Of a DNA stretch of 34,415 bases, positions 16,656-19,630 are shown piece after piece (position 1 is the stretch's first letter; every line of letters starts with the position of its first letter). The notes under the pieces were generated by a model. That model saw nothing but the letters and a program-made list of their open reading frames with translations, had not been told where the DNA came from and did no database searches. The stretch is from positions 1-34,415 of the forward strand of contig JAFAWX010000099.1 in assembly GCA_019241535.1 (NCBI GenBank), read 5' to 3'. This stretch comes from Acidobacteriota bacterium. Lineage in GTDB: Bacteria; Acidobacteriota; Terriglobia; Terriglobales; Acidobacteriaceae. A program made the position numbers and the translations under genes.

Positions 16656-17771
16656 TCAGCTTCTCCACTTCAATACCACTGGCCCCTCGAGCGGATGCCT
16701 GAGTTCGCCGCCCGTGCGCCTGGCCTCAAGATATGCGGACTTCAGCCCGAAGTACCACTTCGCCGGACGGTCGGCGTCGTCAATGAGCATCAAATGCGGA
16801 CCGTGCTTGAGCCCCTCGGCCTGCCGCGCCATGGTCCGCCGGTCCTGTTCGACAAATTTCGCGAACACGAATTTCAGCAACCGGGTACCGAAAGGAAACC
16901 AGCGAAATATGTTCCAGCAAGCGACCACATCGATCCTTGAGCGATCACGAGTAATCGGTGTCACCGTGGTGAGCGAAGAAAACCAGTATTTCCCCGCCCG
17001 GATCGTCTCCCGTCGCAGGTTGGGAAGGACAAAGTCAATAGTGGTTGTGATCGAGTCCGCATCGCTATAGATTTTCAAGAGCTTGTAAGGAGCGCTGTTC
17101 GAGCTCGGTTTGTGGGCGCTCATGCGAAAGCCGTTCGGAATGGGCTCAAATTGCTTCTGCTTTTCATGGATGCTGTGCCCGGTTCGCCACCACCAGGCTT
17201 GATGTACAAAAGGCCCGTGCGCCGGGTCCATCAGGCCGATAATTCCGTGGTCGATGCTGCCCGGCAGCTCAGCACTGAGATACGCTGTTCTGTAGCGCTC
17301 GCCGAACGTAGCAACGCGCGGGGCAGAGCCCTCAGGCTCTTCGCGCCGCGTAAATCCCGCTCCCCGCGGGCCGGGATCGGGAACGAAGACCCAGATAAAG
17401 CTGTCCTGTTCCTGACAGGCATAACTGCCAGCAAAAATTCGCTCGACCCGCAGATTCTGTCCCTCGACCAGCGACGGAATGAGGCGGCATTGACCGCTTT
17501 GGGCGTCAAATCTCCAGCCGTGATAACTGCATTCGAGTTCCTGCCCGTGCAAGCGGCCGCAGGAAAGGGGCATTCCCCGGTGCGGACATGCGTCCTGCAG
17601 AGCAAAGACCCGTCCGTTCGAGTCGCGACCAATCACCAGGGGAACTTCAAGCAGGGTTGTCTTCGCGAGCCGTTTTCCTCGGAGCTTGTCGGCTGGCAGA
17701 GCCCGATACCAGAAGCCGGTCAACATTAGGCAATCTGGGGTCTCGCGCCTGAGCGGTTCAGCAATGGACAT
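16656..17771 (-). CDS. Rieske [2Fe-2S] non-heme iron oxygenase, alpha-subunit type
   Basis: A 371-aa oxygenase of the ring-hydroxylating / PaO-like superfamily. The Rieske site is complete: CPHRGM (C62, H64) and CSYHGW (C81, H84). The mononuclear iron site is visible as MDPAHGPFVHQAWWW (D182, H185, H190). It therefore needs a separate reductase, and none lies nearby. One-component PaO-like oxygenases act on pigments, sterols, vanillate-type aromatics and lipids; the substrate here cannot be named. ATG 17771 has no obvious ribosome binding site; a TGn-extended -10-like TGGTAGGCT (17792-17784) lies only 12 nt before it, so the transcript may have almost no leader. The N-terminus MSIAEPL and WYRALPADKL fits other family members. 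Confidence 0.9.
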   Translation of the reverse strand: MSIAEPLRRETPDCLMLTGFWYRALPADKLRGKRLAKTTLLEVPLVIGRDSNGRVFALQDACPHRGMPLSCGRLHGQELECSYHGWRFDAQSGQCRLIPSLVEGQNLRVERIFAGSYACQEQDSFIWVFVPDPGPRGAGFTRREEPEGSAPRVATFGERYRTAYLSAELPGSIDHGIIGLMDPAHGPFVHQAWWWRTGHSIHEKQKQFEPIPNGFRMSAHKPSSNSAPYKLLKIYSDADSITTTIDFVLPNLRRETIRAGKYWFSSLTTVTPITRDRSRIDVVACWNIFRWFPFGTRLLKFVFAKFVEQDRRTMARQAEGLKHGPHLMLIDDADRPAKWYFGLKSAYLEARRTGGELRHPLEGPVVLKWRS

Positions 17772-17915: not shown

Positions 17916-18086
17916 ATGAAAATCAGCGGATTTCTGCTCCTCGTCTCTGGGTGGCTCATCGTCATTGCCGCCCTTATACTGCTGCACGGCCGGGCCCTCC
18001 CGCCATTTGTCCTGGCGGGACTCGGAACTGAGCTTTTGGGCCTGGTGCTGGTTGCCCGGGCACATCTCGGCAGGGACAATCCGTGA
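17916..18086 (+). CDS. small two-helix membrane protein, coupled to the Amt-like gene
   Basis: 56 aa, shorter than usual annotation cut-offs. The sequence starts MKISGFLLLVSGWLIVIAAL. Two hydrophobic segments (~5-24 and ~30-47) are separated by a short HGRALP turn, and the C-terminus ARAHLGRDNP is polar. It is a likely helical-hairpin inner-membrane protein. Its TGA overlaps the GTG start of the Amt-family gene in the 4-bp GTGA at 18083-18086, so translation is coupled, which strongly supports it being real. No canonical ribosome binding site precedes ATG 17916. By position it may be an accessory or assembly subunit of the Amt-like protein; this is inference, as I know no named family for it. 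Confidence 0.7.
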   Translation: MKISGFLLLVSGWLIVIAALILLHGRALPPFVLAGLGTELLGLVLVARAHLGRDNP

Positions 18087-19330
18087 TCTTTGCTGCCGCT
18101 CTATCCTCCGCTCTGTCGCTGGCGGCAATTTTTCTCGTCCCCCTGGCCATCGCCGGCCTGGCCCTCACCAACGCCGGCCTGGGGCGTTCGCGCAGCGCAG
18201 CCCACGCCATGACGTCGTCGTTGTGCGCCGTTGCGGTTGCCGGCCTCGCGTACTTCACTTGCGGCTTCAGGCTGCAGGGGTATCCAGTCTCGTGGAACTC
18301 CCTCGCGGACGCGGTCCGGAAACCGGAATTTTTTCTCCAGGGAATGGATCCCGGCTTCGGCTCACTTCCCATATTGCTGGGGCTTTTCAGTGTAGGCCTG
18401 TCAGCCCTGATTCCTCTGGGCGCGGCCGCCGACCGGTGGCGTCTGGCTGCCTGCTGGCTTTCAACGCTCCTGTTTGCCGCCATCACCTATCCGGCTTTTG
18501 CTCACCTGGCATGGGGCGGCTTGCTGGCACGCCTGGCAAACTCAAGCCTGGGGCATGGCTACCTGGACGCCGGCGGCGCTGGAGCGATCCAGGCCACGGG
18601 CGGGCTGACGGCGCTCGCGATTGCCTGGCTGCTTGAGCCAAGGCGCGGAAAGTATCCCGCGTCCGGCATGCCGGCCGCAATACCCGCGCACAATGGTGTC
18701 TTCGTTCTTTTCGGCTGCATGCTGGCCTGGGCCGGATGGCTCGGACTGAACGCCGCCGGAGCCATAATTTATGGTCGAGTGCCGCCGGAAAACTCGCTCG
18801 CGATTGCCCTCAACACCAGCCTTGCGGCATCGGCGTCCAGCCTGGCTGCGGCCGTGACCACGCGCGTCCGATTCCGCCGCCCGGATGCATCCCTGATCGC
18901 GAACGGCTGGATGGCGGGGCTGGTGGCAAGCAGCGCCGGGTGCGCGATGCTCAAGCCGGCCACGGCAAGCCTGACCGGCCTGCTTGCGGGAATCCTGGTA
19001 GTGCTTTCGGTCGAGTGGTTCGAGCTTCATCTTAAGGTCGACGACCCGTGCGGGTCGATTTCCGTGCACGCCGTGGGGGGAATCTGGGGTATCCTAGCCG
19101 CAGGAATTTTCAGCGGCAACAGCGGGCAGTTGGTTGCCCAACTGACGGCTATCGCCACCCTGCTCGGTTTTACTTTCCCCATGTCGTACGGGCTCAACTG
19201 GGCCGCAGCCCGATTTGTGCGCTATCGCGTTTCGGAGCATGGCGAGCAGCAGGGCCTCGATCTTGACGAGCTCGGTGCCGACGCCTACCCGGAATTTGTG
19301 GTACACGCCGACGAGTTCGTTCAAAGATGA
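18083..19330 (+). CDS. Amt/Mep/Rh-family membrane protein with altered pore residues
   Basis: A 415-aa, roughly 11-helix member of the ammonium transporter family. Family landmarks are present: AHLAWGG (W144, matching AmtB W148), the helix-5 motif starting LDAGGAG (D162, matching D160), DDPCGSISVHAVGGIWG (H329, matching H318) and the cytoplasmic tail RVSEHGEQQGLDLDELGADAY. However, the helix-5 motif, normally D-F-A-G-S/G-x-V-V-H-x-T-G-G, reads DAGGAGAIQATGG, so the first pore histidine is Gln (Q170). The GWFGFNAGS motif is GWLGLNAAG, replacing the inner-gate Phe (AmtB F215) with Leu and the site-S1 Ser with Gly. Ammonium conduction cannot be assumed; a changed transport mechanism, another small substrate or a sensory role are options. 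GTG 18083 overlaps the preceding 56-aa gene. No glnK/glnB is adjacent. Confidence 0.9.
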   Translation: MIFAAALSSALSLAAIFLVPLAIAGLALTNAGLGRSRSAAHAMTSSLCAVAVAGLAYFTCGFRLQGYPVSWNSLADAVRKPEFFLQGMDPGFGSLPILLGLFSVGLSALIPLGAAADRWRLAACWLSTLLFAAITYPAFAHLAWGGLLARLANSSLGHGYLDAGGAGAIQATGGLTALAIAWLLEPRRGKYPASGMPAAIPAHNGVFVLFGCMLAWAGWLGLNAAGAIIYGRVPPENSLAIALNTSLAASASSLAAAVTTRVRFRRPDASLIANGWMAGLVASSAGCAMLKPATASLTGLLAGILVVLSVEWFELHLKVDDPCGSISVHAVGGIWGILAAGIFSGNSGQLVAQLTAIATLLGFTFPMSYGLNWAAARFVRYRVSEHGEQQGLDLDELGADAYPEFVVHADEFVQR

Positions 19331-19363: not shown

Positions 19364-19630
19364 TCAGCCCTGTCCAGGGTGAGGTCCTTCTTCCGCCAGA
19401 TAGGCGATCTGGTCCTTAAAGATGAACAGATTCGGTTTACCCTCGCGCGTCAGCCGCAGCATGTTGCGGTCGTAGTACTCGATCCAGCCGCGCAGAGTTT
19501 CACCATTCACGAGCTTTACCAGAATGCGGCGTTGTTTATCCGCCAGGAATTTCAGATATCTCGCTTCCGCGCTGGTCGATTCGGCAGGCAAAGCCTTCGA
19601 CCTCCGCCGTGCAGTGTCAAAAAAGGCCAT
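19364..19630 (-). CDS. divergent Hfq/Sm-like protein
   Basis: 88 aa. Residues ~25-80 fit an Sm fold as in Hfq: helix (RYLKFLADKQRR), Sm1-like strands (ILVKLVNGETLRGWIEYYDRN, with the NG and G-x-I-x-x-D spacing) and an Sm2-like strand ending FIFKDQIAYL. In canonical Hfq the last motif is YKHAIS; here KH is replaced by KD, which would alter the proximal RNA-binding site. The N-terminal ~20 residues (ARRRSKALPAEST) are basic and could aid RNA contact. No ribosome binding site is obvious at ATG 19630. It lies 67 bp after the TonB receptor gene on the same strand. A cytoplasmic RNA-binding hexamer is the likely form; targets are unknown. Confidence 0.7.
   Translation of the reverse strand: MAFFDTARRRSKALPAESTSAEARYLKFLADKQRRILVKLVNGETLRGWIEYYDRNMLRLTREGKPNLFIFKDQIAYLAEEGPHPGQG

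What the first reader, a model, noticed from the sequence alone, without database searches (positions are those of the whole stretch)
17916..19330. Amt-family protein with Gln in place of the first pore histidine and other altered pore residues
The helix-5 motif reads DAGGAGAIQATGG where family members have D-F-A-G-S-G-V-V-H-x-T-G-G, an ungapped match that puts Q170 at the AmtB H168 position. The second histidine (H329, in SISVHAVGG), the S1 tryptophan (W144) and D162 are kept, but AmtB F215 is Leu and S219 is Gly (GWLGLNAAG). The twin-His pair and Phe gate are the core of ammonium deprotonation and conduction. This gene may be a mechanistic variant, a different small-molecule channel, or a sensor. 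It has no adjacent PII gene but has a coupled small membrane protein.
Basis: partly seen in the sequence, partly recalled or inferred. Interest (0 to 1): 0.7.

Follow-up and report, generated by a model that had tools for sequence, protein, structure and literature searches.

The report
Gate-less ammonium-channel relative with small partner
Soil Acidobacteriota carry an ammonium-transporter relative that has lost the usual pore gate and often one of two signature histidines, is made together with a tiny membrane protein, and is inherited together with a membrane-bound protein kinase, so it may sense or conduct ammonium in a new way.

Summary
The Amt-fold ORF is 18083-19330 (GTG start, 415 aa); 17916-18086 is a separate 56-aa two-helix membrane protein whose stop overlaps the Amt start by 4 nt. 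Q170 sits at AmtB H168. It is not a one-off: the protein belongs to a strongly supported clade (SH-aLRT 100) across Terriglobia (Acidobacteriota). Among 80 named homologues the first pore His is Gln in 61, His in 17, Asn in 1, Ala in 1. Q and His interchange repeatedly on the tree, so Gln is tolerated rather than clade-defining. The fixed changes are at the gate: AmtB F107 to Ser/Ala/Cys/Gly/Thr (79/80), F215 to Leu (78/80), S219 to Gly (77/80). D160, W148 and H318 are kept. The small protein precedes 75/80. Both genes are under purifying selection. The new result is linkage: a tail-anchored Ser/Thr kinase, usually next to a PP2C phosphatase and an amino-acid permease, occurs in 33/34 genomes with this Amt and 4/43 without (permease 19/21 versus 0/20). 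In the window's own genome they lie on another contig. Best reading: an ammonium-handling Amt paralogue with altered conduction, probably a receptor or transceptor for the kinase. Substrate and flux are untested. New variant of a known kind.

The parts
17916..18086 (+). small 56-aa membrane protein (two-helix hairpin), upstream partner, stop overlaps the Amt start by 4 nt
   Evidence: homologue directly upstream of 75/80 named clade members and all 30 in-family loci; AF2 helices 3-22 and 25-54, pLDDT 86.7
18083..19330 (+). divergent Amt/Mep/Rh-family protein, GTG start, 415 aa
   Evidence: PF00909 222 bits; AF2 pLDDT 91.8, pTM 0.92; Z 51.5 to AmtB, 54.6 to Ks-Amt5; only PF00909 gene found in its genome
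18386..18391 (+). F102-S103, the AmtB S106-F107 positions: outer Phe of the gate replaced by Ser
   Evidence: alignment; S/A/C/G/T in 79/80
18512..18514 (+). W144, AmtB W148 (S1 site), kept
   Evidence: W in 78/80
18566..18568 (+). D162, AmtB D160, kept
   Evidence: D in 80/80
18590..18592 (+). Q170 (CAG), AmtB H168, first pore histidine
   Evidence: Q 61, H 17, N 1, A 1 of 80; codons CAG/CAA and CAC/CAT
18746..18748 (+). L222, AmtB F215, inner Phe of the gate replaced by Leu
   Evidence: L in 78/80
18758..18760 (+). G226, AmtB S219 (S1 serine) replaced by Gly
   Evidence: G in 77/80
19067..19069 (+). H329, AmtB H318, second pore histidine, kept
   Evidence: H in 78/80
19226..19327 (+). C-terminal tail, conserved R-V-x-x-x-G-E-x-Q-G-[ML]-D-L-x-E-L-G-A-x-A-Y-P-E-F
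   Evidence: G391, D393, E396-G398, A401-P403 invariant in 81 sequences

Best explanation
The gene pair encodes a divergent Amt protein and a dedicated two-helix membrane partner. Shown: the Amt fold is kept (predicted model), the Phe gate and S1 serine are lost across a whole clade, the first pore His is free to be Gln, both genes are under purifying selection, and the pair is co-inherited with a membrane-tail-anchored Ser/Thr kinase and an amino-acid permease, usually with a PP2C phosphatase. Inferred: ammonium still enters at the S1 Trp/Asp vestibule and reaches the single remaining pore His. Without the Phe gate, flux is low or no longer follows the deprotonating Amt mechanism. The protein mainly reports external ammonium, as a receptor or transceptor, through the small partner to the kinase, which has no sensor domain of its own. 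The kinase/phosphatase pair then sets the phosphorylation of nitrogen-uptake or assimilation proteins such as the permease. Canonical Amts supply bulk ammonium uptake where present.
For: Clade with fixed pore changes. Co-occurrence: kinase in 33/34 carriers and 4/43 non-carriers, with at least one carrier-with and non-carrier-without contrast in 14 genera; permease 19/21 versus 0/20; control gene (Rieske) 20/21 versus 15/20. The kinase is in the neighbourhood in 32/41 fully flanked loci, permease 30, phosphatase 27; all 53 kinases examined end in a single TM segment with no outside domain. In the window's genome the trio is intact on another contig, so linkage alone does not explain co-inheritance. 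Carriers usually also have a canonical Amt: 37/42. Neighbours include GlnA, PII and GlnD. Closest folds are the sensor Amts Ks-Amt5 and Sd-Amt1. Published AmtB F215L strongly reduces transport while F107A/L does not (PMC6856177); twin-His variants turn AmtB from transporter to unselective channel (PMC9040831).
Against: In a few genomes this is the only Amt found: G072 (96% complete) and G197 (94%), both with His at the first site, and the window's own genome (96%), with Gln. That argues it can still move ammonium. Closeness to sensor Amts in fold may be phylogeny only. Ks-Amt5 keeps both histidines and both Phe, so it is not a precedent for these changes. No physical contact between Amt, small protein and kinase was tested. 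The small protein also accompanies canonical-pore sister Amts, so it is not specific to a sensor role. No conserved Ser/Thr target is obvious in the Amt tail.
Confidence: 0.4

Rival explanations
1. A genuine ammonium importer that uses a relaxed pore: without the Phe gate and with Gln or His at the first site it passes ammonium by a more channel-like route, tuned by the small subunit; the kinase module regulates it.
For: Sole Amt in G072, G197 and the own genome. Q/H swaps suggest a site that tolerates either residue. Neighbouring glnA, PII, glnD. Literature: single His variants of AmtB still support growth on ammonia (PMC3647058); W148L partly rescues F215L, so the gate is dispensable in some contexts (PMC6856177).
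Against: W148 is retained, not Leu as in the AmtB rescue; AmtB F215L alone is strongly impaired. Most carriers also hold a canonical Amt, so a second plain importer looks redundant.
Confidence: 0.37
2. A channel for another small solute (for example a larger amine, urea or a neutral gas) that evolved from Amt by opening the gate.
For: Phe gate and S1 Ser replaced by smaller residues across the clade, which should widen the vestibule; an amino-acid permease is a frequent neighbour.
Against: S1 Trp, Asp and second pore His are almost invariant; neighbours point to ammonium assimilation; no substrate evidence of any kind.
Confidence: 0.15
3. Local error, pseudogene or one-off mutation.
For: None found.
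Against: Same residues in dozens of independent assemblies, dN/dS 0.06-0.20 for the Amt and 0.06-0.39 for the small protein, open frames throughout.
Confidence: 0.01

Closest known systems
Sister canonical-pore Amts of the same bacteria (e.g. L116, L120, L121 and second Amt of L113-L115)
   Same: 38-43% identity, same family, several also preceded by a homologue of the small two-helix protein
   Different: keep F107, W148, H168, F215, S219 and H318 equivalents
Ks-Amt5 ammonium sensor histidine kinase (6eu6) and Sd-Amt1 receptor (8qj3/8qj4)
   Same: nearest solved folds, Z about 54, best sequence matches; ammonium receptor idea
   Different: Ks-Amt5 is fused to an output domain and keeps twin His, Phe gate and S1 residues (PMC5764959); the Sd-Amt1 chain is 644 aa, longer than an Amt domain. 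Here there is no fused domain and the pore itself is changed
E. coli AmtB
   Same: fold (Z 51.5), D160, W148, H318, W212
   Different: H168 to Q, F107 to S, F215 to L, S219 to G, no adjacent glnK
Fungal Mep1/Mep3
   Same: natural substitution of the first pore histidine
   Different: theirs is Glu (PMC3647058, PMC9040831), here Gln/His; the Phe gate change is additional

Membership tests
Amt/Mep/Rh superfamily (PF00909) | PF00909 domain over the whole protein | tested here: met
   222 bits versus cut-off 23.2, positions 4-399 of 399
Amt/Mep/Rh superfamily (PF00909) | Amt fold | tested here: met
   AF2 model pLDDT 91.8; Z 51.5 to AmtB over 380 residues
Amt/Mep/Rh superfamily (PF00909) | twin pore histidines (H168/H318) | tested here: not met
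   Q170/H329; second His kept
Amt/Mep/Rh superfamily (PF00909) | Phe gate (F107/F215) | tested here: not met
   S103/L222; clade-wide
Amt/Mep/Rh superfamily (PF00909) | trimeric assembly and ammonium conduction | not testable with these tools
   needs protein biochemistry
TIGR00836 ammonium transporter subfamily | curated score cut-off 343.3 bits | tested here: not met
   212.3 bits
glnK-amtB type ammonium channel | PII gene paired with the Amt gene | tested here: not met
   no PII in the genes scanned around the Amt; the genome's single PII found is on another contig; PII near 5/80 clade loci
Sensor Amts (Ks-Amt5/Sd-Amt1 type) | fused cytosolic output domain | tested here: not met
   415 aa, PF00909 only
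Sensor Amts (Ks-Amt5/Sd-Amt1 type) | pore plugged by F27, Y30, F34 of Ks-Amt5 | tested here: not met
   phmmer alignment gives L26, T29, L33
Sensor Amts (Ks-Amt5/Sd-Amt1 type) | binds but does not translocate ammonium | not testable with these tools
   experiment needed
Fungal Mep1/Mep3 type | acidic residue at the first pore His position | tested here: not met
   Gln, His, Asn or Ala in the 80 named members, never Glu/Asp

The most novel reading that the evidence does not exclude
A new kind of ammonium receptor complex: an Amt paralogue that gave up the gated, twin-His pore, with a dedicated two-helix subunit that relays ammonium occupancy to a tail-anchored Ser/Thr kinase and PP2C phosphatase controlling nitrogen uptake in Terriglobia.
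Probability: 0.3. Interest if true: 0.82.

Novelty: new variant of a known kind. Interest (0 to 1): 0.63.

Why it matters
Whether the twin-His pair and the Phe gate are essential in ammonium transporters is debated from mutants. Here is a large natural clade that dispensed with the gate and lets the first His be Gln while under strong purifying selection, with closely related His and Gln homologues (L061/L100, dN 0.046) for direct comparison. The linked kinase and small partner offer a testable bacterial ammonium-signalling route outside PII in abundant soil bacteria.

Tried and rejected
Sigma-54 sites upstream of the pair: no enrichment over shuffles. Sigma-70-type promoter in the window: none found. 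Family assignment of the small protein: only weak Pfam, NCBIfam and PDB matches (PGPGW, DUF7470, SWEET2b), not reliable. The small protein as a marker of the altered pore: rejected, since canonical sister Amts also have it. Q170 as clade-defining: rejected. A literature precedent for Gln at this site: not found in the held papers (H168Q not mentioned in PMC3647058 or PMC9040831); the PNAS paper on replaceable twin His and aromatic triad is not held. The phylum search with a profile scored only four candidates per genome, so its absences were not used. First pass of the 30-locus alignment ignored strand and was redone.

Full report
What is there. The window lies in an acidobacterial genome (G000, 4.95 Mb, 96% complete; nearest named records are Acidobacteriota MAGs of Terriglobia). 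Two overlapping ORFs make up the finding. 17916-18086 encodes a 56-aa hydrophobic protein; its stop overlaps by 4 nt the GTG start of the 415-aa Amt-like protein at 18083-19330. PF00909 covers the whole Amt protein (222 bits) but the NCBIfam amt subfamily cut-off is missed (212 versus 343 bits). It is the only PF00909 gene found in its genome.

The pore. It adds S103 at F107, A163 at F161 and G164 at A162. Among 80 named homologues, found through C-terminal and loop motifs and not through these residues, the first pore site is Q 61, H 17, N 1, A 1; F107 is small or polar in 79; F215 is Leu in 78; S219 is Gly in 77; D160 is kept in 80, W148 and H318 in 78. Codons are CAG/CAA versus CAC/CAT, one base apart. 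Canonical-pore Amts from the same family of bacteria (38-43% identity) keep every one of these residues.

Evolution. A maximum-likelihood tree with the pore column removed puts the divergent proteins in one clade of 86 rows with SH-aLRT 100 on a long stem (1.27), sister to the canonical group. Q versus not-Q needs 14 changes (quick tree). So the gate loss is ancestral and stable, while the first His is labile. dN/dS between close pairs is 0.06-0.20 for the Amt and 0.06-0.39 for the small protein: both are functional. Members occur in 57 of 299 genomes sampled from the class, in four families.

The small partner. A homologue lies directly upstream of 75 of 80 named members (missing in L054, L072, L074, L091, L110) and of all 30 in-family loci. 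A start codon overlapping its stop by 4 nt is available in 55 of 75. AF2 predicts a helical hairpin (helices 3-22 and 25-54, pLDDT 86.7). Pfam, NCBIfam and PDB give no convincing family. More distant homologues sit upstream of several canonical sister Amts (L116, L117, L120, L121, L122, L130), so the pair probably predates the pore change.

Structure. The AF2 model of the Amt (81-sequence alignment) has pLDDT 91.8 and pTM 0.92. Nearest solved folds are the sensor Amt Ks-Amt5 (Z 54.6), receptor Sd-Amt1 (about 54), then AmtB-GlnK (51.5) and A. fulgidus Amt-1 (51.4).

Neighbourhood and co-inheritance. Next to the pair, in 32 of 41 loci with full flanks, is an orthologous Ser/Thr kinase (median 69% identity among copies). 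An AA_permease_2 transporter is there in 30 and a PP2C phosphatase in 27. glnA, PII and glnD also recur. In L113 and L115 a porin, a canonical Amt, a CPA2 exchanger, the small protein, the divergent Amt, the kinase and glnA follow one another on one strand. All 53 kinases examined end in one TM helix with nothing outside. I then asked whether the kinase is inherited with the Amt. Over two searches it is present (E <= 1e-70) in 33 of 34 carriers and 4 of 43 non-carriers (Fisher p 3e-16, not corrected for relatedness). Non-carriers were picked for lacking the divergent Amt, without knowledge of the kinase. Concordant contrasts occur within 14 genera, including the window's own, where G027 lacks the divergent Amt, kinase and permease; exceptions are G260, G245, G225, G122 and G081. 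The permease is in 19 of 21 carriers and 0 of 20 non-carriers. A control, the Rieske gene next to the pair in the window, shows no such pattern: 20/21 and 15/20. In the window's genome the kinase, phosphatase and permease are together on contig C203, away from the Amt.

Relation to canonical Amts. Of 42 carriers, 37 also have at least one canonical Amt; each has one divergent one. Only the divergent one was found in G072 (96%), G197 (94%), three less complete MAGs and the own genome. G072 and G197 have His (L019 and L026), the own genome has Gln. The six non-carriers looked at have canonical Amts. So the divergent protein is not needed for ammonium uptake in general, but may suffice in some species.

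Mechanism. From published work: AmtB F107A or F107L is active, F215L strongly reduces transport, W148L rescues gate mutants (PMC6856177); F215A/H/E/S/W abolish it (PMC10433425); single His variants allow growth on ammonia but not methylamine transport, and Glu is the natural substitution discussed there (PMC3647058); twin-His variants switch AmtB towards an unselective channel (PMC9040831); [quoted passage not shown] By inference, a protein with Ser/Leu at the gate, Gln at the first site and Trp retained should be a poor or mechanistically different ammonium conductor. Together with co-inheritance with a kinase lacking its own sensor, I favour a receptor or transceptor role (0.4) over a relaxed-pore importer (0.37) or another solute (0.15). 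These steps are inferred, not shown.

Verdict. It is a member of the Amt/Mep/Rh superfamily by domain and fold that fails two of the features held to define its mechanism. I rate it a new variant of a known kind, interest 0.63.

Noticed in passing
L067 4980-6320; L107 4965-6269: L067 has lost both pore histidines (Ala and Phe) and, like L058 and L085, lies beside genes that look like tryptophan-synthesis genes; L107 has Tyr at the second site. L067 is a natural member without either pore His.
   Followed up: no
upstream of the pair in L051, L080, L096, L048, L052, L066, L078, L099 and others: Conserved promoter-like element AAAATTCGATTGGACG followed by a TTAGCCT-like stretch; 14 of 74 loci at 3 or fewer mismatches versus 0.3 in shuffles; no such match in the window.
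   Followed up: partly
L113 and L115: One-strand nitrogen cluster: BBP2 porin, small proteins, canonical Amt, CPA2 exchanger, small protein, divergent Amt, kinase, glnA.
   Followed up: partly
L133 4086-9557 (own genome contig C203): A gene in the porin position of other loci, then permease, PP2C and kinase in a row; PP2C 55% identical by tblastn.
   Followed up: yes
window 19364-19630: 88-aa Hfq-like protein (PF21979, 29 bits versus cut-off 27), convergent with the Amt; a relative is also next to the Amt in same-genus L033.
   Followed up: no
window 16656-17771: Rieske oxygenase-like protein conserved widely in the family, next to the pair in several loci; used as control gene.
   Followed up: partly
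L134 (own genome C189): The only PII gene found in the own genome sits beside what look like ATP synthase genes, not beside an Amt.
   Followed up: no
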